From IMG/VR virus record IMGVR_UViG_3300042470_001171, positions 1 through 64,000 of that record: DNA of 64,000 nt; one strand, written 5' to 3'. The notes beneath the pieces are model-generated. The model searched no databases, had not been told where the DNA came from, and was given only the letters and a program-made list of their open reading frames with translations. The position numbers were made by a program, and so were the translations under genes. Below, piece after piece: positions 4,642 through 38,697 of the stretch (position 1 is the first letter of the stretch; each line of letters opens with the position of its first letter). Source of the stretch: a virus.

Positions 4642-4645
4642 CGCC

Positions 4646-5364: not shown

Positions 5365-5401
5365 GAAACCATATTCCTGACGTCAGCAAAAAGGTGTAGC
5401 C

Positions 5402-6495: not shown

Positions 6496-6520
6496 GGTGG
6501 ATCCCTCAGAGAATTTTTTA

Positions 6521-6530
6521 TAGGGTGCCC
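6521..6530 (-). promoter_or_regulatory. GGGCACCCTA element before the 6495 gene
   Basis: On the minus strand GGGCACCCTATAAAA stands about 26 nt before the start codon. The same decamer occurs upstream of several late and regulatory genes in this window. Confidence 0.45.
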
Positions 6531-6545
6531 AGGTTGGTGGTTGTG

Positions 6546-6600
6546 TGCTATACTCGGGGTAGCACATTGACAATTTGTGGTGACAGGTGACAGTGATGAA
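6546..6600 (+). promoter_or_regulatory. CRISPR leader, array 1
   Basis: Begins TGTGCTATACT (extended -10 like) and continues through TTGACAATTTGTGGTGACAG and GTGACAGTGA to the first repeat. The same order of blocks is found before arrays 2, 3 and 4, marking a conserved leader with its own promoter. Confidence 0.65.
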
Positions 6601-6738
6601 TCCCACTCCGGTGGGGGTTTCTCGACCACCGCCGCCTATATGGTGGACTTTGCCCCTCGCAAACACCTCCCCGCTTCGGTGGGGGTTTCTCGCTCTGACT
6701 GAGGCCTCAAAGCACACCCCACCACCGTGGGAGTCCTC
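6600..6738 (+). CRISPR. CRISPR array 1: three repeats, two spacers
   Basis: Hairpin cores are TCCCACTCCGGTGGGGG (6601), CCCCGCTTCGGTGGGGG (6669) and CCCCACCACCGTGGGAG (6717). The middle repeat has the full left part GCAAACACCT; the last is truncated. Unit lengths are 68 and 48 nt. The array runs right and ends against the stop of the leftward 6737 gene. Confidence 0.75.
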
Positions 6739-7463: not shown

Positions 7464-7650
7464 AAAAGAAAAACCCCCACCAGTGTGGGGACTCGCCAGA
7501 GTCAAGAAGCACCCCCACCAGTATGGGGCGAGGGAGAGAACTCTGAAACATCCCCACCACTGTGGGGAAACATGCAACTATAGTTTGGATCCACCCCCAC
7601 CAAAATGGGGCTAGGTATTGTCATCGACACACCCCCACCAGCGTGGGGCC
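7464..7650 (-). CRISPR. CRISPR array 2: five short-unit repeats
   Basis: Read on the minus strand, five hairpins of form CCCCANNNTGGTGGGG lie 38-43 nt apart (core A positions 7637, 7599, 7556, 7517, 7479). A 7-nt tail ending in TC follows each, e.g. GTGTGTC, GTGGATC, ATGTTTC. This leaves spacers of only about 15-20 nt. A leader lies upstream and a terminator downstream, so this is a self-contained unit of short crRNAs. Confidence 0.75.
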
Positions 7651-11439: not shown

Positions 11440-11522
11440 GCCCACAACAGTGGGCGTGTTTCGTGGGATCAAGGCTTTTCTGTGTCAAGAATGACGCATA
11501 CCACCCCACCGCCGTGGGGGTT
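11440..11522 (+). CRISPR. Leaderless CRISPR unit: two repeats, one spacer
   Basis: GCCCACAACAGTGGGCGTG (11440) and CCCCACCGCCGTGGGGG (11503) are 64 nt apart, about a full-length unit. They lie after the XRE gene and in its orientation, with no leader. Confidence 0.5.
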
Positions 11523-11848: not shown

Positions 11849-12448
11849 ATGCTGGCCAGACAACCCCTCGACTTCTATCCCACCCCCGGCCTGCTCACCT
11901 GGGCCTTGCTGGATAGCCATCGCTTTGTCCCCTGGCGCAACCAGGCCACCGTGCTGGAGCCCTGCAATGGCGAGGGTGCGATCAGCGATGTGCTGAAAGA
12001 ATCTGGCTTGTTCCGCCTGGTGGATACCGCCGACATTGATCCGGCCAAGACCAAGCCAGCAACCGCCATCGGTGCCACCAGCTTCACCATGGACGCCACC
12101 GATCCGCAAGCCTGGGCCCGGATGGCCCGCTACGACTGGGTGATCACGAACCCGCCCTACAACCAAGCCCCGGCGATCTTGCCATTGGCCTACGACAACT
12201 GCCGGGTGGGCATGGCCATGTTGTTGCGCCTCAGTTACCTGGAGCCCTGCAACAACCGGGCCCGCTGGCTGGCAGAACACCCGCCGGCCAAGCTGATCGT
12301 CTTTAACCCCCGGCCACGGTTCCGGGCGGATACAGTCGGCAGCGACTCGGTGACTAGCGCCTGGTTTATCTGGCACCGCTTCGGCAATAGCCAAGGGACT
12401 GAGCTTGAATTTTGTACTAACTGGAGAAACCATGGAACTGACAATTGA
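11849..12448 (+). CDS. DNA N6-adenine methyltransferase
   Basis: 199 residues. The SAM-binding motif I is VLEPCNGEGAISDVL (~30-44) and the catalytic NPPY motif is DWVITNPPYNQAP (~97-109), typical of adenine-N6 DNA methyltransferases. An N-terminal DFYPTP motif is also usual in phage members. It overlaps the start of dnaN by 17 nt, so the two are coupled. It may protect phage DNA from restriction or mark it for regulation. Target sequence unknown. Confidence 0.85.
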   Translation: MLARQPLDFYPTPGLLTWALLDSHRFVPWRNQATVLEPCNGEGAISDVLKESGLFRLVDTADIDPAKTKPATAIGATSFTMDATDPQAWARMARYDWVITNPPYNQAPAILPLAYDNCRVGMAMLLRLSYLEPCNNRARWLAEHPPAKLIVFNPRPRFRADTVGSDSVTSAWFIWHRFGNSQGTELEFCTNWRNHGTDN

Positions 12449-13565
12449 CGCCAAAGGCCTAGCCGCTGTCCTGGCCCTGCCTAACCGGGCGGTGCCAAAC
12501 AGGCCCAGCAACCCTGTACTAACTAACCTGCTGCTCAATGCTGAGGGGGATACCCTGGCGGTGACAGGCAGTGACCTGGGAGCGGTGACCATCACCGCCA
12601 AGGCCAAGGCCAGCATTGCCGTAGAGGGCGAGATCCTGCTACCGGCCAAGCTACTCACCGATATGGTGGGGCGGATGGACGGGAACCTAGCGCTTAACTG
12701 GGATCCAGAAACCAGCCAGGCCACCATCAGCACTCTGGGAGGCAAGTATTCCCTATCCGGCCAGCCCGGGGAGGACTACCCGCTGATCGAGCGGGCAGAG
12801 GGCCAGCAGCTAACCATGGAGGCCAGCACCTTGGCCAGGGCACTAGAGTCCACGCTAGTCACCGCTAGCGATGACGAGAGTAAGCAGATCCTTTGTGGCG
12901 TTCACCTGCAACCCGTTGCCGATGGCCTCGAGGTTGCCTCCACCGATGGCCATCGCCTCAGCGTGTTCCCCGTGGCCCAGGAGGGCATTGAAGCATTTAC
13001 CCCTGTCACACTGCCTAGCAAAGGCCTGAAGGCCCTGAGTGGGCACCTGGGCAAGGCTGAGGGGATGGTGACGGTAACGCTAGACAACACCATCGCCACC
13101 TTTGACCTGGGTGGCCTGGTATTTACCACCCGGCTACTGGAGGGCCAGTATCCAGAGTACCGCCGACTCATCCCCCAGGCCTTTGTAGTGGAGACCCTGA
13201 TCAACCGGCAAGCCTGGATCGATGCCCTGAGCCGGATCATGGTGGTGGCTAGCCAAAAGCAAGGCATCATCAGGCACCAGTGGAATGACCAGGGACAGCT
13301 AGTGCTAGAAGCTGACGTACAAGGCTCTAGCGGGCGGGAGCTGGTTGACTGTGAGGCCAGCGAAGGCCAGGGTGAGGACGTGCTGGGCAAAGCTAAGAAT
13401 CCCATGGCCTTTAACGGCGACTACCTGCTGGATGGCCTCAAGGCCTTCGGCAGCGAGCAGGTGATCCTGCACACCAACACCCCGACCAGCCCAGCCACGA
13501 TCACCGCCCCCGGCAGCAGCCAGGTGTACCTGGTGATGCCAGTACAAATCAGGGACCAGATTTAG
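12432..13565 (+). CDS. dnaN: DNA polymerase III beta subunit (sliding clamp)
   Basis: 377 residues, near the bacterial length of ~366. Start at 12432 (MELTIDAKGLAAVL) after GGAGAAACC rather than the in-frame upstream Met. Three clamp domains are recognisable: NRPSNPVLTNLLLNAEGDTL, KQILCGVHLQPVADGLEVAS with STDGHRLSV, and the closing CTLPVQ-type end LVMPVQI. A phage-encoded clamp implies recruitment of host polymerase III or capture of phage partners; two proteins in the window carry clamp-binding-like motifs. Confidence 0.93.
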   Translation: MELTIDAKGLAAVLALPNRAVPNRPSNPVLTNLLLNAEGDTLAVTGSDLGAVTITAKAKASIAVEGEILLPAKLLTDMVGRMDGNLALNWDPETSQATISTLGGKYSLSGQPGEDYPLIERAEGQQLTMEASTLARALESTLVTASDDESKQILCGVHLQPVADGLEVASTDGHRLSVFPVAQEGIEAFTPVTLPSKGLKALSGHLGKAEGMVTVTLDNTIATFDLGGLVFTTRLLEGQYPEYRRLIPQAFVVETLINRQAWIDALSRIMVVASQKQGIIRHQWNDQGQLVLEADVQGSSGRELVDCEASEGQGEDVLGKAKNPMAFNGDYLLDGLKAFGSEQVILHTNTPTSPATITAPGSSQVYLVMPVQIRDQI

Positions 13566-13593: not shown

Positions 13594-13983
13594 ATGGAAC
13601 GCTTTACTTTTGCCGACTGCACCATCCAGGGCAGGCTGATCCGAGACCCCGAACTGCACACAACACCGTCTGGCAGCGCCCGTTGCCAGACCGCTATCAA
13701 TTGGTACAGCGGCAAGCACGCCAATGGCGAACCGTACTACAGCCTAATCGACGTAACGATCTGGAAGGAAGCAGGCATGGACGCTGTTGACAACTTACGC
13801 AAGGGCGACCGTGTGAAAATGGTCGGCTCACTGAAACGAGAACAATGGCAGGACAAAAATACTGGCGGCAACCGCTCTAAGCATGTGCTGCACGTTTGGG
13901 ATGCAGTCGAGCTGATCGAGCGCCCCAACCAGGACCAGCCAGCCCAGCCCAGCCAGCCCACCTACGAGGACATCCCCTTCTAA
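13594..13983 (+). CDS. ssb: Single-stranded DNA-binding protein
   Basis: 129 residues. OB-fold sequence (GRLIRDPELHTTPSGSARCQ, DVTIWKEAGMDAVDNLRKGD, RVKMVGSLKREQW) then a Gln/Pro linker and the acidic partner-binding tip YEDIPF. The leader ACACTTACAGAGGAGA precedes the ATG. It binds replication intermediates and docks host or phage repair proteins through its C-terminus. One-nt overlap with the next gene. Confidence 0.93.
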   Translation: MERFTFADCTIQGRLIRDPELHTTPSGSARCQTAINWYSGKHANGEPYYSLIDVTIWKEAGMDAVDNLRKGDRVKMVGSLKREQWQDKNTGGNRSKHVLHVWDAVELIERPNQDQPAQPSQPTYEDIPF

Positions 13984-14183: not shown

Positions 14184-14206
14184 CGACAGATCCCACCACC
14201 GTGGGA
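14184..14206 (+). CRISPR. Solitary CRISPR repeat hairpin
   Basis: TCCCACCACCGTGGGAGTGC lies about 10 nt after the stop of the ssb-linked gene and before its terminator, in the same orientation. Could release one short RNA from the mRNA 3' end if cut by Cas6e. Confidence 0.45.
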
Positions 14207-15337: not shown

Positions 15338-15751
15338 CTACAAACTACAGGGGCGGTCAATGTGGTGGACGCCAAGATCGCATCCCTTGATCCTCAATGC
15401 TGCGTACTCCCCCCGCCTCTGTGTCTGGCCTGGGAATAACGATAGCTGCACTTGCTGAGGTTCAGCGGCAGGGCGGCCAACATCCTGATTTAGCCATTCC
15501 AGATAACCTGGATCGCTACCGCCCAGGTTAGGCCCTGGCGCTGGATGCTGGATCCCGCCAACCTTGACGATAGTGCGCTTTACCCATGGCGGATCCAGTA
15601 GGTTGCCTTCTATGTGGTTATACCAACGCATTTCTATAGCTCGGTGACACAATGCCCGGCCACGCATAGCCGTCAAGATATCACCCGTCCTGGCCGCTTC
15701 AGTAAGTAGCGCCTGTCCCTGCTCAAAAAGACATTTAGCCTCGTCTATCAT
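15338..15751 (-). CDS. Hypothetical protein with clamp-binding-like motif
   Basis: 137 residues. Helical N-terminal half (MIDEAKCLFEQGQALLTEAA, MRGRALCHRAIEM) and a C-terminal segment with QVQLSLF (residues ~99-105), matching the bacterial sliding-clamp motif QL[SD]LF. Co-translated with the sigma factor through overlapping stop and start. It may tether something to the phage DnaN. Function inferred from the motif only. Confidence 0.55.
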   Translation of the reverse strand: MIDEAKCLFEQGQALLTEAARTGDILTAMRGRALCHRAIEMRWYNHIEGNLLDPPWVKRTIVKVGGIQHPAPGPNLGGSDPGYLEWLNQDVGRPAAEPQQVQLSLFPGQTQRRGEYAALRIKGCDLGVHHIDRPCSL

Positions 15752-16338
15752 TGCGCCAGCCCCCAGCAGCTCACCTCGTAGACTGGCTCTGGCTCCCAGT
15801 CTGGCTCTGGTGGTGGCCTGCTATCGGGTAGCTCCCAGCAGTCGGTTAAGCCAGCCGCTAGCGGTGCATCCAGGCTGAGGCAGTCTGGCCGTAGCAACGC
15901 ATTGAGCGCCTGCGGGATCTGGTCTATCGGGATCCGGGTAGCGCTGGCCATGGCGGCATGGCTGGCCCGCTCGTCATAGAGCTGGCGTAGCAGGGTGAAC
16001 CGGTCTGACCAGCTACGCGGTATCTTCAGCGTCACCGCCCGGTCCCGGCGATGGTGCAATATCTCACCCCGGATGTAGGGCACAGCGTAGCTACTGAAGG
16101 CGGTGCCCTTAGCTGGGTTGTAGCGGTCCACTGCCTTGATCAGGCCGATCACTCCCACCTGCACCAGATCCTCGAATACTTCCACGCCGTCCTGGGCATA
16201 GCGGCCAGCTATCTTCTCCACCAGCCCCAGGTTGATCAGGATCAGAGTGTCGCGGGTACGCTTATAGTCGGCGGCTTTTAGTTGGGTTCTAAGCCGCGCA
16301 AATAACTCTTGTGTTTGGATCCGTATTTCCCGGCTCAT
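15748..16338 (-). CDS. RNA polymerase sigma-70 family factor (SigF/group 3-like)
   Basis: 196 residues. Region 2 is clear: LINLGLVEKIAGRYAQDGVE, FEDLVQVGVIGLIKAVDRYN, then FSSYAVPYIRGEILHHRRDR (2.3-2.4, promoter opening and -10 recognition). A region 3-like helix set follows (ERASHAAMASATRIPIDQIP). A canonical region 4 is not visible and the C-terminus is Pro/Glu-rich. It would redirect host RNA polymerase to phage promoters, perhaps late genes. Divergent from the integrase. Confidence 0.85.
   Translation of the reverse strand: MSREIRIQTQELFARLRTQLKAADYKRTRDTLILINLGLVEKIAGRYAQDGVEVFEDLVQVGVIGLIKAVDRYNPAKGTAFSSYAVPYIRGEILHHRRDRAVTLKIPRSWSDRFTLLRQLYDERASHAAMASATRIPIDQIPQALNALLRPDCLSLDAPLAAGLTDCWELPDSRPPPEPDWEPEPVYEVSCWGLAQ
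16273..16288 (+). promoter_or_regulatory. Dispersed element inside the sigma gene
   Basis: GGCTTTTAGTTGGGTT within the N-terminal codons of the sigma gene, about 60 bp downstream of its start. Confidence 0.45.
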
Positions 16339-17356: not shown

Positions 17357-18029
17357 ACTCCCACGATGGTGGGGTATAGGATAGGTACGGGCTGGAGGAA
17401 CGCCCACTAGAGTGGGGAATGCCAAGCCCAGTTTCACGCTGGAGCGATAGGGGCAAGACTCACCCCCACCAAAGTGGGGAGGTGTTTGCGAGGTGACGGG
17501 TCAGGCTAGCAAACTGGCCCTAACCGAGAAACCCCCACCGGAGTGGGGAGGTGTTTGCGAGTTAAGGGTGCTGGCGCGGTGCCTGACACTGACGAAAGGG
17601 AAAAACCCCCACCGAAGCGGGGAGGTGTTTGCGAATGCCGAGTCAATCGTGGTGGGCCTAACAGCTACCCCGGAGAAACCCCCACCGAAGCGGGGAGGTG
17701 TTTGCGAGCAGTGGGATCGGCACATTCAACGTCGGAGCGGTGGTCGATCAACCCCCACCGGAGTGGGGAAGTGTTTACCAGGCTGTTGTAAACGGGTTTC
17801 CGGCACATAGAAAAACCCCCACGAGGGTGGGGATACTGTGTTTCAGCCACCTCAAGGGCCAGGGGCGTGATAGGATAAACCCCCACCGAAGTGGGGAGGT
17901 GTTTGCGCTTGGGCACCGTGGCGCAATACGGCTTTTTCTCGGAGAAACCCCCACCAAAGCGGGGAGGTGTTTGCGAGAGGGTGCCCTATGGGCTGTCACT
18001 ATCGGCAGAAAAACCCCCACCGGAGTGGG
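17357..18029 (-). CRISPR. CRISPR array 3: eleven repeats, mostly full-length
   Basis: On the minus strand, repeats read GCAAACACCTCCCCGCTTCG then GTGGGGGTTTCTC, close to type I-E repeats. Plus-strand core positions (A of CCCAC) are 18019, 17953, 17885, 17821, 17757, 17684, 17611, 17537, 17468, 17406, 17363. Units are 66, 68, 64, 64, 73, 73, 74, 69, 62, 43 nt. With a ~36-nt repeat, spacers are ~28-38 nt. Repeats at 17821, 17406 and 17363 are degenerate. No cas gene lies within 1.3 kb. Confidence 0.9.
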
Positions 18030-18080
18030 TCCACCGTCACCTACCACCAAATTTTCAAAGTTCTTGCCCCCACTATAGCA
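18030..18080 (-). promoter_or_regulatory. CRISPR leader, array 3
   Basis: Minus strand: TTTGTGCTATAGTGGGGGCA, AGAACTTTGAAAATTTGGTG, GTAGGTGACGGTGG, first repeat. The TGTGCTATAGT block is an extended -10 promoter. Confidence 0.75.
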
Positions 18081-18111
18081 CAAAGCTGGCCAGTTGGTGC
18101 AGGCAAAGCAA

Positions 18112-19327: not shown

Positions 19328-19426
19328 CTCCCACCAAGTGGGAAGTAGGGGATACCGACATAGGATCCACTCCCACGCTGGTGGGGCCTCTTCATGCAGT
19401 GATCCACTCCCACCGCAGTGGGTATC
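19328..19426 (-). CRISPR. Leaderless mini-array after cas5e: three repeats
   Basis: Minus-strand hairpins CCCACTGCGGTGGGAGTGGA, CCCCACCAGCGTGGGAGTGG and CCCACTTGGTGGGAGTG at 19412, 19375 and 19333 (plus-strand core A). Units 37 and 42 nt. The first hairpin is within 20 nt of the cas5e stop codon, in the operon's direction. Confidence 0.7.
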
Positions 19427-19429
19427 GCG

Positions 19430-19876
19430 CTAGGCCTCCTCCCGGGCAACAGCCCAGATCGGGCCAGACGGGACACAATTACGCCGTCCTAGGTATAGCT
19501 GGAATTTAGGCCGGGCCAGCGCCTTGGCAATGGTGCGGATCTGCTGCAAGTCACCCCGCAGGGTAACGGTAGAACTGAAGTCGCTCAGGTAGTGCCGGGT
19601 GGTGATGGCATTGCGGCCTGGGGCCCCGTCATAGGTGATAGCATCGCGGATGGTGTGGAAGTCCTCCAACACTCCGCCATGGCTTGTCTCGCCTATCTCC
19701 ACCTGCAGCCCGTCCAGTTCCGGCGCTGACTGGCCTCGACGTATCCCCAGGGCAGCACACAACATGCCGCGGATCGCCGACTCAGTTGGGGCATCCTCCG
19801 TCAGTCGTTGCTGCAGCCGTGGCCCGGTGCCATAGGCAGCCATGGGGCCTGCTAGCTTCAGGACTAGCCTAGGCAT
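19430..19876 (-). CDS. cas5e: Cas5e (CasD)-like, short
   Basis: 148 residues from the ATG at 19876, overlapping cas7e. Family landmarks in order: LVLKLAGPMAAYGTG, ESAIRGMLCAALGIRRG, DFHTIRDAITYDG, HYLSDFSSTVTLRGD and FQLYLGRRNCVPSGPIWA. In Cascade, Cas5e caps the 5' handle of the crRNA and holds Cas8e. E. coli CasD is ~224 residues; here the protein ends just after the LGRR block, so the C-terminal third is missing. This is a native stop, with no in-frame continuation seen. Confidence 0.88.
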   Translation of the reverse strand: MPRLVLKLAGPMAAYGTGPRLQQRLTEDAPTESAIRGMLCAALGIRRGQSAPELDGLQVEIGETSHGGVLEDFHTIRDAITYDGAPGRNAITTRHYLSDFSSTVTLRGDLQQIRTIAKALARPKFQLYLGRRNCVPSGPIWAVAREEA

Positions 19877-21122
19877 AGGCCACCTCCTTGCCAGCACCCA
19901 TGGCTACTTGCAGGGCCCCATCAATGGCCCCGTCCAGGGGCTGGCCGAACCAGCCTGGCTGGGTAGTCACTTCAGCTTTGTACAGCGACTTGTCGCCGTA
20001 GATGACGTTTAGCCGGTCCTGGTACTGGCGCAGCGCATCAGCGGCCTGGTGCGGGATACCCTGGGCTAGGAAGTCGTCGTCGGTGGTGCAGCTATTGATT
20101 GACACATGGAATGCCGGTGCCAAGGTGTAAGGCTGAGCCGCTGTCACCCGCACCTGCACATAGTCTGGCCGAGTTAGATGGGCATGGCTGCGCACATAGC
20201 CAGTCGGCAGGGTAGTGCAGAATGCTGTCAGGAATCCCCGGGCAAACTGCTGGGCCAGCTCGGGGTCGCCGATCAAGCGGGCCAGCTCAGTGACATTCAG
20301 GTTGGCATAGCGGTAGTAGACGGGCGAGATGATGGGCAGCTCCCCCAGGTGGCCAGCGCCAGACTTAGATTCCTCATCCAAGGGTTCAATGTCATCTTCG
20401 GCGGTGAAAAAGTCCGGCTCACCAATCACTTGGCCCATGCCCTTGACATTGGTGATACCAAAGGAATTAACCGAGATCGCATCCGCCACTTGGGTGCAGC
20501 CATCGACGCTGGCCTCAGTCAGGCTAGCCATCATCCGGCCAAACAGTGCGACATCCCCTGGTACTTGCTGGCCTAGCTTGCCCAGAGCTTTGCGGATGCC
20601 CTGCAAATCCCTGGCGCTAGGTTTTTCAGGCGCTGGAGCCTTCTTGGGGTTTATATCCAAAGCCTCCTGGTAACGCTGGGCCCGCTCCAGCATATCTCCC
20701 AGTAGCACCGAATGATCGGCGGCCAGAGCGGCAATGGTGTCCAGCTCATGCTCAGACAGGAATAACAGGTTGCCGCTATCCTCCAGCATGGCCGGGATCA
20801 GGTTGTCGTCTTTGAGGTTGAACAAGCCCAACAAGAACCGAGCCACCATCAAGTTATCAGCGTCACCGCCCAAAAAGCCAGTGCAGCAGCAGGATAGGCG
20901 ACTGGCCAGGGCGACGTCATGGCGACGGCTGCGGAAAGCCAAGGCCTTGCGGTCAACGGCCATCCATTCCCCATAGTGTTGCCGGGCGGCCCGTTTCTGG
21001 GACTGGCTGGAGAGCCGGGCCCGCCAGCTACCACCGTATTGGATCTTTTTGGGTGCCCCGGACTTGTCCCGGTTGGCATTGCTGGGCGGTAAAGCGTGGA
21101 TCAGGTGCACTTCGATAAACAT
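19869..21122 (-). CDS. cas7e: Cas7e (CasC/Cse4) crRNA backbone protein
   Basis: 417 residues, GGGAGGAACCCT before the ATG. Diagnostic segments: FIEVHLIHALPPSNANRD, WRARLSSQSQKRAARQ, GDVALFGRMMASLTEA, QVADAISVNSFGITN, PDFFTAEDDIEP and SPVYYRYANLNVTELA. Cas7e polymerises along the guide. It is somewhat longer than E. coli CasC (363), with an extra helical segment around residues 130-170 and a long C-terminus. Full-length, unlike its Cas5e and Cas8e partners. Confidence 0.93.
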   Translation of the reverse strand: MFIEVHLIHALPPSNANRDKSGAPKKIQYGGSWRARLSSQSQKRAARQHYGEWMAVDRKALAFRSRRHDVALASRLSCCCTGFLGGDADNLMVARFLLGLFNLKDDNLIPAMLEDSGNLLFLSEHELDTIAALAADHSVLLGDMLERAQRYQEALDINPKKAPAPEKPSARDLQGIRKALGKLGQQVPGDVALFGRMMASLTEASVDGCTQVADAISVNSFGITNVKGMGQVIGEPDFFTAEDDIEPLDEESKSGAGHLGELPIISPVYYRYANLNVTELARLIGDPELAQQFARGFLTAFCTTLPTGYVRSHAHLTRPDYVQVRVTAAQPYTLAPAFHVSINSCTTDDDFLAQGIPHQAADALRQYQDRLNVIYGDKSLYKAEVTTQPGWFGQPLDGAIDGALQVAMGAGKEVAYA

Positions 21123-21155: not shown

Positions 21156-21297
21156 CACCCCCACCGCCGTGGGGCCTTTTTGGTTGTCGATCCACACCCA
21201 CCGGAGTAGGTTGTATGACGTGTCTGTGCAGGAGACACCCCCACCGGAGTGGGGCCACTGCTCAGCCCTGAGACACCCCCACCAATGCTGGCGCGGG
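21156..21297 (-). CRISPR. Leaderless mini-array between cas6e and cas7e: four repeats
   Basis: Core A positions 21281, 21243, 21200 and 21163; units 38, 43, 37 nt. The first, degenerate hairpin lies in the last codons of cas6e (encoding PALVGVSQG). The others fill the gap before cas7e. Orientation is that of the operon, so Cas6e cleavage would cut its own mRNA. Confidence 0.7.
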
Positions 21298-21876
21298 CTC
21301 AGGCGTAGTCACCGCCGCCACCGGCAGCAACGACAGCAGGCCGCAGCCGTACGCCTTTTCCCGGCCAATGCCGTTGACCATGGCATCAGCTAGCCGCTGG
21401 CTATGGGTCACCGTCAGATACCCGTCCACTACCGATACCTCAATGGGGAATGAACGAGTGTAATGCTCACGGCGCACATGATCATGGTGTTTTTGCACTC
21501 GCACCTGGCGCACCTCGAAGGTAGCACCTAGCCGATCCTCCCTGGCGGCCAGCCACTCAGCGGCAGGCACCGGATAGCGCCGACACCGGTCATCCCGGTT
21601 ACTTTGGGCCACAGAGTTGAGCCCCAGGCGGAAGCGGTAACGCTCCCCAACATTAAGCAGGTTATGCCTAAACTCCAGCTTCACCTGGGCCTCATAGGCT
21701 TTAGGCCACTTGGGCTTTTCTACCGACTGCACCAGGATGGATCCGCCGTCAACCCGGAACAATGCCCCGACTTGGCTGCGGGGGTCTGGGCCCAGATCGT
21801 CAGGAAAGCCCGCCATCACATAGCGGTGCAGGCTTCCATGGCCATCTGGCCGGGCAAAACGAGAAAGGTATAGCAT
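21262..21876 (-). CDS. cas6e: Cas6e (CasE/Cse3) crRNA endoribonuclease
   Basis: 204 residues. The N-terminus LYLSRFARPDG with LHRYVMAGFPD (candidate catalytic His ~17) and the C-terminal Gly-rich loop GIGREKAYGCGLLSLLPV are hallmarks of Cas6e. The central VGERYRFRLGLNSVAQ and RRYPVPAAEWLAAR also align with CasE. Cas6e cuts below the repeat hairpin, leaving a short 5' handle. It starts in the TAATG at the end of the nuclease gene. The last codons overlap a repeat. Confidence 0.92.
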   Translation of the reverse strand: MLYLSRFARPDGHGSLHRYVMAGFPDDLGPDPRSQVGALFRVDGGSILVQSVEKPKWPKAYEAQVKLEFRHNLLNVGERYRFRLGLNSVAQSNRDDRCRRYPVPAAEWLAAREDRLGATFEVRQVRVQKHHDHVRREHYTRSFPIEVSVVDGYLTVTHSQRLADAMVNGIGREKAYGCGLLSLLPVAAVTTPEPAPALVGVSQG

Positions 21877-22520
21877 TATCGTGATCCTCCGTAAACGGTT
21901 CTGTAATTGGCTTGCCGCAGCCAGTCCACCGCAGCAGTCTGGCTGGACAAAGTAAATGTGTTGCTATCGAACCGCACCACTTGCAGCTCGACGCCCAGGC
22001 GGCCCTGGACTAGCTGGGCACCCCGGGCCTGACGTTGGCCACCTACGATCAGGCGGTGCAGAAAAGCTTGGTCTTCGGCGGCAATAGGGCCATCCTGAAA
22101 ACTGCGCTTGATGCGCCCCACATGATCGCAAATGTCTGCCTTGGCCCGCTCGAAGCTGATCGGCACCCCAGCAATGCAATAAGTTGGTCGGGGCACCGCT
22201 GGCACTATCTCCCAGGTGAAGCTGGACAGCTCCCCGCTATCGCGGTGGGTCCGTAAGCGTTCCACCGTGGACTTAGCCGGTAGGCCAGTCTCATGGAATA
22301 GCACCAGGTGCTTTTTGCTGGGCCGAGTCCAGCGTCGTTGGTAACTGTTGCCCTGGCCGATGGCCTCCCGCACCTGGTCGGCAGGCTTTACCTCCACCAG
22401 CGTGTCGTACTGAGCACCGTCGACGACTATGTCAATGCGGTCCTGACCTACGGGCACCTCAGTGCGGCCACCATGGCGGACGGCCCAAGCGTCCCGAATA
22501 ATGTCATGGGGGAAGTTCAT
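21876..22520 (-). CDS. PD-(D/E)XK nuclease-like protein in the cas operon
   Basis: 214 residues, first gene of the cas operon. The nuclease core reads E21, RID30IVV, LVE43VK45 and Q56GNSY60: an acidic residue, D-(x12)-ExK, and a RecB-type QxxxY. The C-terminal half (ICDHVGRIKRSFQDGPI, AFLHRLIVGGQRQARG) is unlike Cas11 or Cas3 and I do not recognise it. It could supply DNA cleavage to a Cas3-less Cascade, act like Cas4, or be an unrelated defence nuclease. Fold call is good; role is inferred from position. Confidence 0.7.
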   Translation of the reverse strand: MNFPHDIIRDAWAVRHGGRTEVPVGQDRIDIVVDGAQYDTLVEVKPADQVREAIGQGNSYQRRWTRPSKKHLVLFHETGLPAKSTVERLRTHRDSGELSSFTWEIVPAVPRPTYCIAGVPISFERAKADICDHVGRIKRSFQDGPIAAEDQAFLHRLIVGGQRQARGAQLVQGRLGVELQVVRFDSNTFTLSSQTAAVDWLRQANYRTVYGGSR

Positions 22521-22590: not shown

Positions 22591-23409
22591 ATGACCGACA
22601 TCTTTACCTACCCCTGCATTGCCACCCCCCAGGGCACCGCCAGCCTAGCCGATCTGCTGGCCAGCCCTGAAGCCTACACCGACATCAGCGAACCCCACCT
22701 CACCCGCCAGGCGTTCCTACGCCTGCTGCTAGCCATGGCCAGTGTCACCATGAAAAACCAGCCCCTATCAGGCGATATGCCGCTGTGGAACAACTGGGGC
22801 GAGCCAGGCTTCCTGCAGGTAACAGGCCTGCCTGAGGCCTCCACCCGTAGCCCCCAAGCGATCATGGATTTGATGGATGGCTCCGGCCCCGCCCTGGTGC
22901 CCCGCAACTTCCTAGCCGCCCCAACCGAGGCCGACCTGATCAAGGCGCTGATCACCGCCTACTTCTGCGATAGGCCCGGGCTCAAGGCTCAGGTGAAGGG
23001 CCTGCCAGTATCTGGGCCCAAGCCTAGCCACATGGGCCAGCTAGTGGCCTGGAAGTGGGGCGATACCCTAGCAGACTTCCTGGAGCTCAACGGCGTGGCA
23101 ACGTCCTCCTGGGTGCCCTGGTGGAAGCGCCCCATCGACTACGGCGAGACGCTGGACGCTGACAACCCCGATCTGGTGCAATACCTCATGTGGCCATGGC
23201 GGCGACTCCAGGCATTCCCTGGCGGCATTGTCGTGGCCGCTGGCGTGAAATGCACCGTAGCCGATCCCTGGGCAATTGCCCGGGCCAGCCTGCGCCACCT
23301 GAGCAAAGGGCTAGCCGAGTTCGAGTTGACCGGGCCTGCCAGGGTGTCGGGCATGGTGCTGAACCAGGCTAGCCCGCTGGCGTGGAAGGAATGGGTGATA
23401 GCTAGGTAG
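22591..23409 (+). CDS. cas8e: Cas8e (CasA/Cse1)-like, short form
   Basis: 272 residues from ATG 22591 after CTGGAGAACTAC. Cse1-like order: ASLADLLASPE, LTRQAFLRLLLAMASVT, EPGFLQVTGLPEAST, QAIMDLMDGSGPALVPRN, ALITAYFCDRPG, PSHMGQLVAWKWGDTLADF and SSWVPWWKRPIDYGETLD then VQYLMWPWRRLQAF. E. coli CasA has ~502 residues; here the protein stops where the C-terminal four-helix bundle would begin. That bundle takes part in target binding and Cas3 recruitment in known systems. Assignment rests on motif order, not a search. Confidence 0.72.
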   Translation: MTDIFTYPCIATPQGTASLADLLASPEAYTDISEPHLTRQAFLRLLLAMASVTMKNQPLSGDMPLWNNWGEPGFLQVTGLPEASTRSPQAIMDLMDGSGPALVPRNFLAAPTEADLIKALITAYFCDRPGLKAQVKGLPVSGPKPSHMGQLVAWKWGDTLADFLELNGVATSSWVPWWKRPIDYGETLDADNPDLVQYLMWPWRRLQAFPGGIVVAAGVKCTVADPWAIARASLRHLSKGLAEFELTGPARVSGMVLNQASPLAWKEWVIAR

Positions 23410-23836: not shown

Positions 23837-23854
23837 GGCAGCTATGGCCAGCCT

Positions 23855-23909
23855 TGTGCTATAGTGTTGGCAGGAACCTTGACAACTTGGTGGTAGGTGA
23901 CGGTGGATC
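23855..23909 (+). promoter_or_regulatory. CRISPR leader, array 4
   Basis: TTGTGCTATAGTGTTGGCAG, GAACCTTGACAACTTGGTGG, TAGGTGACGGTGGATC, first repeat. Nearly identical to the array 3 leader on the opposite strand. Confidence 0.75.
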
Positions 23910-24491
23910 CCACTTCGGTGGGGGTTTTTCGTACCCCCGACAGGGCCTTAACGGCGCGTGGCAAACAGCTCCCCACTTTGGTGGGGGTTTTTCTTTTTTC
24001 TAGCCACGATCAACGGGCTGAGCGACTCGCAAACACCGCCCCACTTCGGTGGGGGTTTCTCCCGTGTGACAGCGCATTCCTTTTCATCCCCGCCTTGGTG
24101 GGGGTGTGTCGATTTGCGGTTAACTCATGCACCCCACCCCCGTGGGAGTCTGTCTGCCATTGCCCGGGCCAGCCAGCTAGCCCCACCACTGTGGGGGTGG
24201 GTCAAGCGGATCCCGTCAGCCCCACAGCGTGGGGGTTTCTCCTGTTACCGGTCATGCCCACCATCGTGGGAGTCTGTCCCTACAAAAATCAGCCCATTCC
24301 GGTGGGAGTCTGTCACCCTGGCTCAGCTACCTAGCCCCACCAGCGTGGGGGTGTCTCGGCTGATTTTGAGGCGGGCGTGGCGGTATCGGTCACCTAGCCC
24401 CACCAGCGTGGGGGTGTCTCGCCTTCGCCTCACGATCCCCACCAGCGTGGGAGTGGATCTTGACAGCCCTTAGCCCACCCCGTGGGAGTCT
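23908..24491 (+). CRISPR. CRISPR array 4: thirteen repeats, long to short units
   Basis: Core T of GTGGG at 23919, 23982, 24050, 24099, 24143, 24192, 24230, 24267, 24303, 24346, 24409, 24448, 24483. Units are 63, 68, 49, 44, 49, 38, 37, 36, 43, 63, 39, 35 nt. Leader-proximal repeats keep the left part GCAAACAC; distal ones are reduced to the hairpin plus a short tail such as GAGTCTGTC or GTGTCTCG. Distal spacers are therefore ~13-20 nt. It ends before the convergent RHH gene. Confidence 0.88.
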
Positions 24492-25607: not shown

Positions 25608-25682
25608 CTCCCACCACAGTGGGATCCGCCTGCAGCAGTCCAGCGACACACCTCCACGACACACCCCCACCGCAGCGGGGAA
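25608..25682 (-). CRISPR. Leaderless CRISPR unit after the FtsK-like gene: two repeats
   Basis: Minus-strand hairpins CCCCGCTGCGGTGGGGGTGT (~25669) and CCCACTGTGGTGGGAGTG (~25613), 56 nt apart with a possible decayed third copy (CCTCCACGA) between. First repeat starts 4 nt after the stop codon of the ATPase gene. Confidence 0.6.
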
Positions 25683-25686: not shown

Positions 25687-26985
25687 CTAGGCGGTCTCCT
25701 GGCCTGGCTTGGTCCGGTAGAATGGCGTCAGTCGCTGGATCGGCGGGATAGCCAGATCAGGCACAACGCCGATCCTCAGGCTATTGGCGTAGATGGCATA
25801 GGTGCGGTTTACCCCGGGCTGGTTGCGGATCTGGCTGTGGTAGCCTTGGGCAGCCTGTCGGTCGGCGGGGGAGCGGATCAAGGCAGGATCCTGGAGCATG
25901 TTGTCAATGCTCTTGCTGTTGCCCTCCATCGGCTTGCCCAGGTTGTCCTGGGTGGTCTTGCAGCCTAGCCCCAGGGTGCATAGGTTATCCCGTAGGCCAC
26001 TGCTAAAGGTATTCCTGCCGCCAGACAGGCTCAGATCGCCTAGCAGGTGCGACTGGTTCACCATGATCAGGTGCATGTTTAGCTCCCGGCCTGCGGCGAT
26101 CAGACTAAGCAAGCGTTGCTCCATGGCCGACTTGACAGAGCCCTCCATGGCGCTGCACTTGCCCTTTAGCAGCATCCATTCGTCGAATACCGCCCAGATG
26201 TGGTTACCCACCGGGCGGCCCGCTTGGTTCAGCTCAAAGCGTCGTTCTAGCTCAGCTTCCAAGTCCCTGACTACCATCACATAGTCAACGCCAGACTTCA
26301 TCCTGGTAACAGCTGGGGTCAACTGTCCCCACTTGGAGCCCTTGGGATCACAGATCACCAGTTCATCGCCGCGGTTGGCCAGGATAGCGCACAAGCACTG
26401 AAGCAGGTGAGTTTTACCGGATCCAGTCGTCGCCGATAGCAAGATATGGATCTGGCTGGCCAGGTACTGGGGCAGGCTAGTGGCCAGCGGTACTGGCTTC
26501 CACCCCTCCACCACTGGCTCCGGTGGCGTCGCTGGCTGGCTTGGCGGTGGTGGTGACGGTGCGGGGCTCGCTGGGCTGGGCTGGCTTTTGGCCTTTGCTG
26601 GACTTTCCCCCTCCGTCTCCAGAGGGGGCAGCACTTTTGGGGCGCTAGCCATGGCACGTTCTATGAACATGTCCAACGTTTCCCGTTGATCAGCTTTCAA
26701 GCCTTGGAGCAATACCGATGGATCCTGGTAACTCTTGGCTACGATCTGACGGTTCTTGCGCAGCCTGCGGGCACCGTCGTAGGCCACCAGGCTAGCGGCG
26801 GCATAAGCAACTGCAGGGATCGACGAAAATGCAGAGAACAGCAGAAACACAACAACCCCCAAGGGTACATGGGCCTTAGGGATCTGTTGGGCGTAGTGCT
26901 GCCTCAACATATCGTTGAGAAATTCTGGAGCTTGCGAACTGCCTTTCAGGCTACTTGGCACGGGCTTTTGCTGACTCATGGCCAC
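25687..26985 (-). CDS. FtsK/HerA-like DNA translocase ATPase
   Basis: 432 residues (a second Met lies at 26979). N-terminal hydrophobic segment (~40-65, VPLGVVVFLLFSAFSSIPAV), Pro/Ser-rich linker, then Walker A LLSATTGSGKTHLLQ (~183), ELVICDPKGSKWGQL and Walker B HIWAVFDEWMLL (~262). Membrane anchor plus motor matches FtsK/HerA or coupling-protein types that move DNA. With three membrane-protein genes upstream it may form a membrane DNA-transfer or segregation machine. Substrate direction unknown. Confidence 0.8.
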   Translation of the reverse strand: MAMSQQKPVPSSLKGSSQAPEFLNDMLRQHYAQQIPKAHVPLGVVVFLLFSAFSSIPAVAYAAASLVAYDGARRLRKNRQIVAKSYQDPSVLLQGLKADQRETLDMFIERAMASAPKVLPPLETEGESPAKAKSQPSPASPAPSPPPPSQPATPPEPVVEGWKPVPLATSLPQYLASQIHILLSATTGSGKTHLLQCLCAILANRGDELVICDPKGSKWGQLTPAVTRMKSGVDYVMVVRDLEAELERRFELNQAGRPVGNHIWAVFDEWMLLKGKCSAMEGSVKSAMEQRLLSLIAAGRELNMHLIMVNQSHLLGDLSLSGGRNTFSSGLRDNLCTLGLGCKTTQDNLGKPMEGNSKSIDNMLQDPALIRSPADRQAAQGYHSQIRNQPGVNRTYAIYANSLRIGVVPDLAIPPIQRLTPFYRTKPGQETA

Positions 26986-28556: not shown

Positions 28557-28620
28557 CACCCCCACAATGGTGGGGCAATTAAAGCGCTTCAGCAGGATCC
28601 ACCCCCACTGGCGTGGGGCT
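28557..28620 (-). CRISPR. Leaderless CRISPR unit: two repeats, one short spacer
   Basis: Minus-strand hairpins CCCCACGCCAGTGGGGGTGG and CCCCACCATTGTGGGGGTGA, 43 nt apart. The first lies within 6 nt of the stop of the 28626 gene and shares its direction. Confidence 0.65.
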
Positions 28621-28625: not shown

Positions 28626-29048
28626 CTAGTCCTCGTCAGTGCCACCGTAGGCAGCGGGCAAGCGCAGGGCCGGAGGCTGGATCCCGGCAGAGAAAGCTTT
28701 GAAGCGTTCCACCAAATCAGCGTCAGGACGCTTAGGCAAAAGGCCAGAAATGTCAATCGGCTCAATGGTGGTGTTGATCGTCATGGACCGGACGTTGGCC
28801 AGCCGGGCCATGACAGCGCCCATCAAGCCTTGGCCGCTAAGGGCGTCTTCAAGCAAAGGCGCTATCTGATCAGCCAGGCGCTCCTTAGTGGAGCTGTACT
28901 GCTCGGCCAGGCTGGCCAGGGCCAGGGCGTCTGACTGCATCTGGCCAGCAATGGCCATGGCCAGCTCATGGCCAGCGGCTAGCGGCGCAACACCCTCGGG
29001 GGTGCCGGTGGACTGAGACTGTTCGTTAAGTTGATCGGAGAGGTTCAT
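28626..29048 (-). CDS. Helical hypothetical protein
   Basis: 140 residues, largely helical (HELAMAIAGQMQSDALALAS, EQYSSTKERLADQIAPLLED) with an acidic C-terminus. The start overlaps the preceding stop by 4 nt. Pair-wise arrangement under the 29334 operator recalls partition or replication-control operons, but no family is recognised. Confidence 0.6.
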   Translation of the reverse strand: MNLSDQLNEQSQSTGTPEGVAPLAAGHELAMAIAGQMQSDALALASLAEQYSSTKERLADQIAPLLEDALSGQGLMGAVMARLANVRSMTINTTIEPIDISGLLPKRPDADLVERFKAFSAGIQPPALRLPAAYGGTDED

Positions 29049-32445: not shown

Positions 32446-33366
32446 ATGGGCGCAACCTTACACCCCGTATTCCAGCGGGAATCCATGATCTGGCAAAGCA
32501 TTCTGACCGCCAACGAAAAGCTATTGCTGCTTTGCCTCAACTCGTTCCTAGGCGCTGATGGCCGATGCTTCCCCAGCATTGCCACCATGAGCCGGATGAC
32601 TGGCCTCAGTCGCAGCACGACTAACCGCACCCTGGCCCTACTCGAAGACCAAGCCATCATCAACAGCCAGCAACGCTACCGCGATGACGGCAGCCAGACC
32701 GCCAGTGATCGGTTCCTGGATTTTGATGCCATTCCAATGGCCAAACCGGATCCAGATCCAGCCGAAAATCAAGGCGGGGGGGTATGTCAAAATGACATGG
32801 GGGTGTGTCAGGATGACATGGGGGTGTGTCACAGTGAAACGGGGGGGGTGTCAGACTGGGAGGGGGGGGGTGTCAGCTTGACACACCAAGAACTATCCAG
32901 AAGAACTATCCAGAAGAACTATCTAGATCTTTTCCCCCCTACCCCCCGTTCAGAAAAAAAAGGGAAAAAAGAAACCAGCAAGCTGGATCCGGAAAGAACT
33001 GTTGCGCCGCCCGCCGCCGCGCCGGTGGCCGCAGTGGATCCATCCAAGCCTGATCCATTCGCGGCCCAGTTTGCGCCCAGGCCGTGGCGGGAGAATGGGT
33101 GGGGCAAGATCTTGCCAAAGTTCTGCGAGTTCATGGTTGCTGGCAAGCACATTGTTGTTGACGGGCAGATGAACCCTAAGACGAAGGCGATGTACCATGT
33201 GTCAAACTTGGAGCGAGATGGCAAATGGGATAAACTGGAATATCTCTGGGCTGAGTACCAAGCCAGCCTGCAGCCAGCCAGGCCAAAGGCTAAGCTGGCC
33301 ACGGAAAGCTATGACGAGCGGGTGCGTCGGGAGATGAACCAACACCAACAGAGGGAACACGCATGA
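32446..33366 (+). CDS. Replication initiator with winged-helix N-terminus (lambda O-like arrangement)
   Basis: 306 residues from ATG 32446 after AAGGAG. The N-terminus IWQSILTANEKLLLLCLNSF, RCFPSIATMSRMTGLSRSTT and NRTLALLEDQ is the helix_36-type HTH of phage and plasmid initiators. Residues ~110-150 are Gly/Val-rich and encoded by DNA iterons. A Pro/Ala linker and a C-terminal domain (RPWRENGWGKILPKFCEFMV) follow. Overlaps dnaB by 4 nt, so it may load the helicase. The internal origin recalls lambda gene O. Confidence 0.75.
   Translation: MGATLHPVFQRESMIWQSILTANEKLLLLCLNSFLGADGRCFPSIATMSRMTGLSRSTTNRTLALLEDQAIINSQQRYRDDGSQTASDRFLDFDAIPMAKPDPDPAENQGGGVCQNDMGVCQDDMGVCHSETGGVSDWEGGGVSLTHQELSRRTIQKNYLDLFPPTPRSEKKGKKETSKLDPERTVAPPAAAPVAAVDPSKPDPFAAQFAPRPWRENGWGKILPKFCEFMVAGKHIVVDGQMNPKTKAMYHVSNLERDGKWDKLEYLWAEYQASLQPARPKAKLATESYDERVRREMNQHQQREHA
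32774..32925 (+). other. Candidate replication origin inside the initiator gene
   Basis: Five related iterons begin at about 32774, 32798, 32819, 32841 and 32861, each a G-run plus TGTGTCA or TGTCA (e.g. TGGGGGTGTGTCAGGATGAC). They are followed by three 13-bp AT-rich direct repeats AAGAACTATCCAG at 32887, 32900 and 32913, then an A-rich tract to ~32975. Iterons plus AT-rich 13-mers is the usual layout of an initiator-bound origin. Confidence 0.65.
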
Positions 33367-37447: not shown

Positions 37448-37645
37448 ATGCAACTAAGCTCCCAGGCAAAGGCCACATTCCGCAAAGGCATTGCCCGCAC
37501 CAAAGCCGCCCAGGCTGCGGCCAAGGAGCTAGCCGCCCTGGTGCTAGCCCAGCCAGACGCCCCGCCAGCCATGCAGGCCCTGGCCCGGCAGGTGCTTGAT
37601 CCGGTGGTGGTGGTAATGGAGGAAGAGCAGCAGGACGCGGCGTAG
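37448..37645 (+). CDS. Small Ala-rich helical protein
   Basis: 65 residues: MQLSSQAKATFRKGIARTKA then AAKELAALVLAQPDAPPAMQ and an acidic end EEEQQDAA. Three nt after the methyltransferase stop. Followed directly by a CRISPR mini-array. Confidence 0.55.
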   Translation: MQLSSQAKATFRKGIARTKAAQAAAKELAALVLAQPDAPPAMQALARQVLDPVVVVMEEEQQDAA

Positions 37646-37650: not shown

Positions 37651-37892
37651 GCCCCACGGGTGTGGGGGTGAGTCTTGCGACTCTTGAGGCCCACTGCGGT
37701 GGGGGTGTCTCGACTTGGGGAAAGGTGCCCCACCAAGTGGGGGTGAGTCGAGATGGCGGGGAGGCCCACTGCGGTGGGGGTGAGTCGGTTTAGCTCCTGT
37801 GCCCCACTAGGTGGGGGTGACTCCTACAGGGTTATGGTGTCCCACGGGGTGGGGGTGGCTCAGTAGCCTTTGAGGCCCCACGGGGTGGGGGA
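37651..37892 (+). CRISPR. Leaderless mini-array of seven repeats with a 37-nt period
   Basis: Core T positions 37663, 37700, 37738, 37775, 37812, 37850, 37886; units 37, 38, 37, 37, 38, 36 nt. Repeats read GCCCCACTAGGTGGGGGTGA then CTC or GTC. Spacers are 13-15 nt: e.g. TTGCGACTCTTGAG, GACTTGGGGAAAGGT, GAGATGGCGGGGAG, GGTTTAGCTCCTGT, CTACAGGGTTATGGT, AGTAGCCTTTGAG, all different. It begins 6 nt after the upstream stop codon, in the same direction. Confidence 0.8.
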
Positions 37893-37919: not shown

Positions 37920-37995
37920 GGTTGTGCTAAAATAGAAGTGCCCTAGGGCGGCTCAACACCCCAGGGCAATGTCCCCTACCACAACTAGGAGAGCT
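37920..37995 (+). promoter_or_regulatory. Leader region of the antirepressor gene
   Basis: Contains a candidate -10 TAAAAT (~37929), a GCCCTAGGGC palindrome (37943-37952) repeated imperfectly as CCCAGGGC (37963), and GGAGAGCT before the ATG. Possible operator hairpin. Confidence 0.4.
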
Positions 37996-38697
37996 ATGAA
38001 TAGCTTAGCAGTTTTTGAGTTTGATTACAGTGGTTCCACCGTTCGCAGCACCGAGGATCGGCGGTTTAGTGTCTACGATGTGCTGGTAGCGTTCGGGGTG
38101 GCTGATAAGCCATCCAACGCTAAGAATGTCTATGATCGGCTTGCTGCAAGCAATCTAGAACTAACTACGATCTGTAGTAAGTTCAAATTCCCAGGCCGAG
38201 GGCAGCGAGACACCCCGGTAGCCACTGAAGAGGGCATCTACCAGATCCTGATGCTGTGCCCTGGCCAGCGTGGTGCAGAGTTCCGGGCCTGGGCCGCTGG
38301 CATTCTTGCCGACCCAGACAAGGCCCTGACCCATGCTGTCAGCAAGTACAAGCGCCAAGGCCGATCCGACAACTGGATTAAGGCTAGGCTAGACGGCAAG
38401 CTGAACCGCCGACACTTCACCGATACCCTCAAGGAACACGGTGTTGAAGGTATTGGCTATGCCAAGTGCAGCGATGCTATCAACGTCCCGATCCTGGGTG
38501 CCCCGGCCAAGCAGATCCAGCAGGCCCGGGGAGTAGTGCATACCAGGGATGGGCTTGATGATGTGGAGCTAGCGGCCATCAGCCTGGCTGAAGCAGTGGC
38601 TAGAAGGTCAATTGACCAGGATAGCCGCTGGGGCAATAGCCAGTGCGAAGAGGCTTGCGGCGATGCAGCTAGGAAGGTGAAGCGGGTTTTCGAGTAG
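37996..38697 (+). CDS. Phage antirepressor with BRO-N domain
   Basis: 233 residues from ATG 37996. BRO-N/antirepressor features: RFSVYDVLVAFGVADKPSNA, ASNLELTTICSKFKFPGRGQ, TPVATEEGIYQILMLCPGQR and FRAWAAGILADPDKA. The C-terminal part (DNWIKARLDGKLNRRHFTDT, GIGYAKCSDAINVPILG) is shared by cyanobacterial and phage antirepressors. It probably counteracts a repressor to permit lysis. A dispersed element copy follows the stop at 38701. Confidence 0.8.
   Translation: MNSLAVFEFDYSGSTVRSTEDRRFSVYDVLVAFGVADKPSNAKNVYDRLAASNLELTTICSKFKFPGRGQRDTPVATEEGIYQILMLCPGQRGAEFRAWAAGILADPDKALTHAVSKYKRQGRSDNWIKARLDGKLNRRHFTDTLKEHGVEGIGYAKCSDAINVPILGAPAKQIQQARGVVHTRDGLDDVELAAISLAEAVARRSIDQDSRWGNSQCEEACGDAARKVKRVFE

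What the first reader, a model, noticed from the sequence alone, without database searches (positions are those of the whole stretch)
37651..37892. Seven-repeat array with a strict ~37-nt period and 13-15-nt spacers
Seen: units 37, 38, 37, 37, 38, 36 nt; all spacers differ. Known: I-E units are ~61 nt, and shorter spacers give smaller Cascade complexes. Such regularity argues for selection on short guides and not random decay.
Basis: partly seen in the sequence, partly recalled or inferred. Interest (0 to 1): 0.85.

Follow-up and report, generated by a model that had tools for sequence, protein, structure and literature searches.

The report
Phage CRISPR arrays with seed-length guides
A bacterial virus carries its own stripped-down CRISPR machinery (no cutting enzyme and no memory-making enzymes found) with many small arrays whose guides are less than half the usual length, yet evolve as working guides should, which suggests it uses CRISPR to bind rather than cut something outside its own genome.

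Summary
The array is real: seven hairpin repeats at 37652-37890 (+), units 37, 39, 36, 38, 38, 36 nt. It is one of about 12 repeat clusters in a 72.8-kb phage that encodes type I-E Cas5e, Cas7e and Cas6e, a truncated Cas8e-like protein and a nuclease-like protein. No Cas1, Cas3-HD or Cas11 was found in three phages of the group. Eight phages carry the same array at the same place; whole units are gained, lost and duplicated. Short units are not random decay. The Cas6e stem and parts of the 5' handle (GTnnnTC) hardly change. Guide lengths are discrete (12-16, 19-20, 24-25; none of 44 between). In 33 guide families, positions 1-5 and 8 changed twice in 198 sites, while 12 of 32 changes fall at positions 6, 12, 18 (P 0.002), the bases that Cascade flips out. 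Leader arrays run long-to-short: new spacers are normal length, old ones short. No targets were found, and own-genome matches are at chance. Best reading: a Cas3-less I-E variant whose mini-arrays make seed-length crRNAs that bind, not cut, non-self DNA. Main rival: RNA anti-CRISPR decoys. No transcript or binding data exist.

The parts
37652..37890 (+). Finding: leaderless mini-array, 7 hairpin repeats, 6 guides of 13-15 nt; its first stem begins 6 nt after the TAG stop of the 65-aa ORF 37448-37645
37652..37667 (+). One repeat stem-loop, CCCCAC GGGT GTGGGG (predicted Cas6e site)
37668..37675 (+). Its 8-nt 5' handle GTGAGTCT (bases 1-2 GT and 6-7 TC unchanged in all homologous pairs)
37817..37839 (+). 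Example handle plus guide: GTGACTCC then TACAGGGTTATGGTG, a guide shared by 7 phages with its first 9 bases unchanged
19430..19897 (-). cas5e (casD)
   Evidence: TIGR01868 6e-31; PF09704
19869..21122 (-). cas7e (casC), 417 aa, with insertions against the T. fusca protein
   Evidence: TIGR01869 6e-54; PDB 5u07 2e-34; alignment
21262..21876 (-). cas6e (casE); His17 in LHRYVMAGFP is invariant in 3 phages (likely the catalytic His) and the C-terminal glycine-rich motif is kept
   Evidence: TIGR01907 1e-13
21876..22520 (-). 214-aa protein overlapping cas6e; candidate PD-(D/E)XK nuclease (E21, D30, E43-V-K45 conserved)
   Evidence: weak PF03749 (SfsA RE domain) E 0.004
22591..23409 (+). Truncated Cas8e/Cse1-like protein, 272 aa, matching only the N-terminal part of Cse1
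   Evidence: dN/dS 0.14-0.19
17374..18030 (-). Leader array, 11 repeats, guide stretches 42,44,40,40,49,49,50,45,38,19; leader at about 18031-18100
23908..24488 (+). Leader array, 13 repeats, guide stretches 39,44,25,20,25,15,13,12,19,39,15,12; leader at about 23845-23907
7490..7648 (-). Leader array made only of short units (14,19,15,14)
6601..6732 (+). Leader array, 3 repeats (44,24)
19343..19423 (-). Leaderless mini-array directly after cas5e (13,19)
21174..21292 (-). Leaderless mini-array between cas6e and cas7e (14,19,13)
25624..25680 (-). Repeat pair 6 nt after the stop of gene 25687-26985
28575..28618 (-). Repeat pair 7 nt after the stop of gene 28626-29048 (19)
11440..11519 (+). Repeat pair (40), second repeat degenerate
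14191..14206 (+). Solitary repeat

Best explanation
The array is part of a phage-encoded type I-E-derived CRISPR system. Shown by sequence: cas5e, cas7e and cas6e under purifying selection, a Cas8e-like protein lacking the C-terminal part, no Cas1/Cas3-HD/Cse2 found, about 50 repeats in 12 clusters. Inferred steps: Cas6e cuts the mRNA-borne mini-arrays at each hairpin. The resulting crRNAs (8-nt handle, 13-15-nt guide stretch, stem-loop) are bound by Cas5e at the handle and Cas6e at the hairpin, with only 2-3 Cas7e between them instead of 6. The small complex binds DNA through an 8- to 14-base seed pairing and blocks transcription or replication of a non-self target (host or rival phage) without cutting. 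Leader arrays take up normal-length spacers, probably with host Cas1-Cas2; the old, leader-distal units and the leaderless mini-arrays form a conserved set of seed-only guides.
For: cas genes; dN/dS 0.04-0.19 at dS up to 0.9. Repeat anatomy fits Cas6e plus Cas5e: stem 2% changed, handle bases 1-2 and 6-7 0 of 336 each, against handle 3-5 36% and loop 31%. Guide lengths 12-16, 19-20, 24-25 with 0 of 44 at 17, 18, 21-23 (smoothed null expects 8-11); type I-F1 literature gives L = 6N-4, i.e. 8, 14, 20, 26, 32 (PMC7296934). Guide positions 1-5 and 8: 2 changes in 198 sites; 12 of 32 changes at 6, 12, 18, expected 4.9, P 0.0017; positions 1-8 change less than loops, P 6e-18 (sites not independent). 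Every sixth base is flipped out and the seed is 1-5 plus 7-8 in E. coli I-E (PMC5904413), where 5 seed pairs plus PAM suffice to bind. Short spacers repress without cutting in type I-B (PMC10989794). Polarity: 186 of 195 long/short pairs have the long unit nearer the leader, P<5e-5.
Against: No target found for any guide, short or long; own-genome seed matches are at chance. No RNA data. Best-fitting length period is 5.5 nt, with 5.0-6.25 about as good, so 6 is compatible, not proven; long-unit modes (about 40, 45, 49, 53) do not fit a 6-nt ladder from the same origin. The sixth-base excess rests on 32 changes, was noticed before being tested with the register fixed by published structure, and the families are not fully independent. 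Guide homology was defined by guide similarity, which lowers apparent guide divergence (but not the pattern among positions). Cas8e identity is by weak steps; the AlphaFold model failed.
Confidence: 0.55

Rival explanations
1. RNA anti-CRISPR decoys (Racr-like), possibly helped by dominant-negative phage Cas subunits: short crRNA mimics tie up host I-E Cas6, Cas5 and Cas7 in small dead-end complexes.
For: Racrs mimic repeats, occur as solitary units in phages and inhibit I-E (PMC10651486). Short complexes and missing Cas3/Cas11 fit a defective complex. No targets.
Against: A decoy needs stem and handle but no particular guide, yet guides are conserved in a seed and sixth-base pattern. The phage makes its own Cas5e/6e/7e. 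Leader arrays with turnover of 32-37-nt spacers, two of which overlap by 12 nt and so seem to come from one target, look like true memory.
Confidence: 0.22
2. Cas6e cleavage sites used for mRNA processing: hairpins behind stop codons trim or protect phage mRNA 3' ends or separate cas genes.
For: In 5 of 12 clusters a stem starts 6-7 nt after a stop codon of a gene on the same strand, also in relatives; two clusters lie behind cas genes.
Against: Does not need the invariant handle, discrete guide lengths, arrays of up to 11 units or conserved guides; leader arrays have their own promoter-like leader.
Confidence: 0.1
3. Neutral erosion: leader-distal units are old spacers shortened by deletion with no function.
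For: Short units are leader-distal and repeats at some ends are degenerate (11504, 37876).
Against: Guides change less than loops and handle bases 3-5; lengths are discrete; short units are more often shared between phages than long ones (28 of 45 against 10 of 46, P 1e-4); mini-arrays stand alone behind genes, away from leaders.
Confidence: 0.08
4. TIGR array (36-nt dual-spacer units served by a Nop-domain Tas protein).
For: Unit of about 37 nt in a phage; TIGR systems are mostly viral (PMC12045711).
Against: No Nop domain in three phages; one guide per unit with a Cas6-type hairpin; I-E cas genes present.
Confidence: 0.01

Closest known systems
Type I-E CRISPR-Cas (E. coli, Thermobifida fusca)
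   Same: Cas5e, Cas7e, Cas6e; hairpin repeat with an 8-nt 3' tail serving as 5' handle; leader and polarized arrays; new spacers mostly about 32-33 and 36-38 nt
   Different: Cas8e truncated, no Cas11, Cas3 or Cas1 found; old units carry 12-25-nt guide stretches; repeats scattered in 12 clusters, many leaderless behind genes
Virus-encoded CRISPR-Cas lacking adaptation and nuclease genes (huge phages, PMC7162821)
   Same: Phage-borne, no Cas1, compact arrays; repression without cleavage was proposed there
   Different: A 73-77-kb phage, type I-E, with seed-length guides
CreA / shortened-spacer repression by type I-B Cascade (PMC10989794)
   Same: Seed-length guide, repression without interference
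   Different: CreA is a single antitoxin RNA with a known promoter target; here dozens of guides with no known target
Racr RNA anti-CRISPRs (PMC10651486)
   Same: CRISPR-repeat mimics in phage genomes, solitary or in small arrays
   Different: Here they lie beside phage cas genes and the guides are conserved
Cas cassette on Thermosynechococcus sp. WC_1 MAG contig JAGVDA010000054.1 (L117)
   Same: Short Cas8e-like protein (279 aa) and Cas7e (41% identity) with an oppositely oriented Cas5e
   Different: Normal repeat units of about 60 nt; contig only 6.9 kb

Membership tests
Type I-E CRISPR-Cas | Cas5e, Cas7e, Cas6e | tested here: met
   TIGR01868, TIGR01869, TIGR01907 above cut-off
Type I-E CRISPR-Cas | Cas8e (Cse1) large subunit | tested here: inconclusive
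   No direct Pfam or PDB hit; 32% identity, E 2e-17, to the L117 ORF, which itself hits Cse1 weakly, E 0.003; hhalign E 3e-5 to the N-terminal part
Type I-E CRISPR-Cas | Cas11 (Cse2) | tested here: not met
   PF09485 absent in G000-G002; that control rang in only 2 of 14 genomes and missed E. coli, so the absence is less sure
Type I-E CRISPR-Cas | Cas3 helicase-nuclease | tested here: not met
   PF18019 (Cas3 HD domain) absent in G000-G002
Type I-E CRISPR-Cas | Cas1-Cas2 adaptation | tested here: not met
   PF01867 absent in G000-G002; Cas2 not tested
Type I-E CRISPR-Cas | Polarized arrays with leader and ~32-nt spacers | tested here: met
   14 leader arrays in 4 genomes, for their leader-proximal units only
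Racr RNA anti-CRISPR | Repeat mimic inhibits host CRISPR-Cas | not testable with these tools
   Host unknown; no assay
Racr RNA anti-CRISPR | Not associated with cas genes (solitary repeat units as described in PMC10651486) | tested here: not met
   cas5e/7e/6e in the same genome
TIGR-Tas | Nop-domain Tas protein | tested here: not met
   PF01798 absent
CreTA-like Cascade-guided regulation | Seed match to a promoter in the same genome | tested here: not met
   Own-genome seed matches at chance; the host genome was not available

The most novel reading that the evidence does not exclude
A type I CRISPR system with two tiers of memory: long spacers are captured at the leader and, with age, replaced by or trimmed to seed-only guides of quantized length that are kept by selection, copied into 3' UTRs of phage genes, and used by mini-Cascades of 2-4 Cas7 for binding without cutting.
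Probability: 0.25. Interest if true: 0.92.

Novelty: new variant of a known kind. Interest (0 to 1): 0.8.

Why it matters
Shortened type I guides are known mainly from engineered constructs and a few single regulatory RNAs. Here a phage lineage appears to keep dozens of them, and their substitution pattern echoes the base-flipping of Cascade, so base pairing in nature can be read from sequence alone. If true, it gives a natural minimal Cascade, a test of how phages use nuclease-free CRISPR, and a reason to lower the minimum spacer length in array finders (one survey read here used MINCED with a 25-nt minimum, PMC12607003, which would miss these arrays).

Tried and rejected
Rfam: no family matches. 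Intrinsic terminators: no T-run after the hairpins on the array strand. AlphaFold2 on the Cas8-like and nuclease-like proteins with 3-row alignments: pLDDT 34 and 37, not used. Targets: own and sister genomes by BLAST and spaced seeds, phage and plasmid collections, three exact scans of IMG/VR: none. The one strong long-unit match (27 nt in the phosphoesterase-like gene 7706-8566) comes from a unit that may carry duplicated coding sequence; not taken as a target. An apparent excess of seed matches in the own genome over shuffled guides vanished against random own-genome segments. The guide rates used loose clusters that mixed unrelated guides; replace them. Compensatory stem changes: too few to test. 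A 6-nt ladder for long units is not supported. Host: terminase hits include Leptolyngbya phages among others and the nearest cellular Cas7e is from a Thermosynechococcus MAG; a cyanobacterial host is likely, not shown.

Full report
WHAT IS THERE. The window is the first 64 kb of a 72,813-bp virus record. At 37652-37890 (+) lie seven copies of a hairpin CCCAC-(3-4 nt)-GTGGG, all but the last followed by GTnnnTC; units are 37, 39, 36, 38, 38, 36 nt. A scan for this motif over the whole phage gives 29+28 sites at score 16 or more (some are the palindrome read on the other strand), against 0 and 2 in the reversed genome. They form about 12 clusters: 6601-6717+, 7648-7490-, 11440-11504+, 14191+, 18030-17374-, 19423-19343-, 21292-21174-, 23908-24473+, 25680-25624-, 28618-28575-, 37652-37876+, and 72228-72306+ outside the window.

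CAS GENES. Between 19.4 and 22.5 kb on the minus strand lie a 214-aa unknown, cas6e, cas7e and cas5e in the order of transcription, with repeat clusters between cas6e and cas7e and after cas5e. Cas6e keeps His17 and the C-terminal glycine-rich motif in three phages. On the plus strand, 22591-23409 encodes a 272-aa protein with no Pfam or PDB match. It is 32% identical (E 2e-17) to a 279-aa protein beside cas7e on a Thermosynechococcus MAG contig (L117), whose N-terminus hits Cse1 weakly (E 0.003). A profile of the four aligns with the first 350 of 557 columns of full Cse1 proteins (hhalign E 3e-5, probability 48%). So it is most likely a Cas8e without the C-terminal part. The 214-aa protein keeps E21, D30 and E43-V-K45 and hits the SfsA RE domain at E 0.004: a candidate PD-(D/E)XK nuclease, no more. 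Cas1, Cas3-HD and Cse2 models find nothing in three phages of this group. The Cse2 control was weak (2 of 14 genomes), so the absence of Cas11 is less sure. dN/dS of the five genes is 0.04-0.19: they are maintained.

RELATIVES. IMG/VR holds relatives G001 (77.5 kb), G002 (74.2 kb, with a 127-bp terminal repeat) and several fragments. The finding's array sits at the same place, after the same 65-aa ORF, in eight phages counting this one, with 4 to 11 repeats. Whole repeat-guide units are shared, missing or tandemly duplicated (one guide three times in G005/G008); a unit of the 28.6-kb cluster in G000 recurs in this array in G002. This is how CRISPR arrays evolve. In 2.9 million viral contigs a two-repeat short-unit pattern was found only in this phage group.

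TWO KINDS OF UNIT. All arrays were measured from the end of the 8-nt handle to the next stem. Fourteen arrays in four genomes share a leader (TGTGCTATAGT...GGAACCTTGACAACTTGGTGGTAGGTGACGGTGG). In them the units next to the leader are long (about 38-55 nt, which in most includes a 13-nt 5' extension of the repeat, CTCGCAAACACCT, leaving spacers of mostly 32-33 or 36-38 nt), and those far from it are short (12-25 nt). 186 of 195 long/short pairs are in that order (permutation P<5e-5). Long units are mostly private to one phage (10 of 46 shared); short ones are mostly shared (28 of 45; P 1e-4; these two counts use the looser clusters). Two long spacers of G001 overlap by 12 nt, as if taken from one target. 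Leaderless clusters, the finding among them, are made mostly of short units, and in five clusters of G000 a stem starts 6-7 nt after the stop codon of a gene on the same strand.

WHY THE SHORT UNITS LOOK FUNCTIONAL. (a) Lengths: 44 short-unit clusters are 12-16, 19-20 or 24-25 nt; none is 17, 18 or 21-23, where smoothed nulls expect 8 to 11. The best period is 5.5 nt, with 5.0-6.25 nearly as good. For type I-F1, spacer length = 6N-4 for N Cas7 subunits (PMC7296934), and Cascade size follows crRNA length (PMC6828817). E. coli I-E has 37 nt between handle and stem (own knowledge: 32-nt spacer plus GAGTT), so 13, 19 and 25 would be 2, 3 and 4 Cas7. (b) Handle: bases 1-2 (GT) and 6-7 (TC) never change in homologous pairs (0 of 336 each; GT was also required of the repeats entered), bases 3-5 change in 36%, loops in 31%, stems in 2%. 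A Cas6-only role would not need the handle. (c) Guides: in 33 families of homologous short guides compared at equal length, positions 1-5 and 8 have 2 changes in 198 sites; positions 6, 12 and 18 hold 12 of 32 changes where 4.9 are expected (P 0.0017). In E. coli I-E the seed is positions 1-5 and 7-8, and every sixth base is flipped out and unpaired (PMC5904413; PMC13122317). I saw the peaks at 6 and 12 before testing them; the register was fixed by the handle and by published structure, not fitted, but the families are not fully independent and the numbers are small.

TARGETS. None found. Guides match their own genome no more than random own segments do, which speaks against self-regulation and fits non-self targets. 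Long spacers match nothing convincing in phages, plasmids or, for three tested exactly, IMG/VR. The host is unknown; a cyanobacterium is likely from the nearest Cas7e and some of the nearest terminases.

MECHANISM. In E. coli five seed pairs plus a PAM are often enough for Cascade to bind (PMC5904413), and type I-B spacers of 24 nt or less repress without cutting or priming (PMC10989794). A nuclease-free I-E effector with seed-length guides would therefore act as a repressor or roadblock. I give 0.55 to short guides acting by base pairing in small Cascade complexes; that the effect is repression of a host or rival-phage target is the less certain half of it. RNA decoys of the Racr type get 0.22: they explain short units and missing targets, but not guide conservation.

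MEMBERSHIP. It works like, and by Cas5e/Cas7e/Cas6e derives from, type I-E, but Cas3, Cas1 and Cas11 were tested and not found and Cas8e is truncated, so it is not a standard member: a new, phage-borne variant of a known kind.

Noticed in passing
L117 (JAGVDA010000054.1, Thermosynechococcus sp. WC_1 MAG) 3680-6907: A related cassette, cas5e(-)/truncated cas8e/cas7e, flanked by I-E arrays with normal repeat units of about 60 nt; possibly another phage or plasmid.
   Followed up: partly
21876-22520 (-): Candidate PD-(D/E)XK nuclease overlapping the cas6e start codon; might replace Cas3.
   Followed up: partly
37969-38697 (+): Protein downstream of the array matches PADLOC candidate defence family PDC-S13 (E 4e-24) and weakly BRO-N; not found at this position in several relatives.
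   Followed up: no
37652, 19423, 21254, 25680, 28618: A repeat stem begins 6-7 nt after the stop codon of the upstream gene, in five unrelated places and in relatives; reason unknown.
   Followed up: partly
19869-21122 (-): Phage Cas7e (417 aa) is longer than the cellular I-E Cas7 chains matched (314-378 aa), with insertions; Cas6e of G001 has a 24-aa insertion that G000 and G002 lack.
   Followed up: no
12405-13565 (+), 13594-13983 (+), 15748-16338 (-): Phage appears to carry its own sliding clamp and SSB (by reading the sequence) and a sigma factor (SigF-like hits).
   Followed up: no
1-654: 126-bp tandem repeats (5.2 copies) coding a repeated INPVTNAVVATITVG...YVANQ motif in a 1232-aa protein.
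   Followed up: no
32778-32876: 21-22-bp tandem repeats (GGGGGTGTGTCAAAATGACAT) inside the coding sequence upstream of dnaB.
   Followed up: no
25680-25624 (-) and G001/G002 homologues: Partial repeat duplication leaves guide stretches of 19 nt (G000) and 24 nt (G001, G002), differing by one 5-nt insertion between two length classes.
   Followed up: partly
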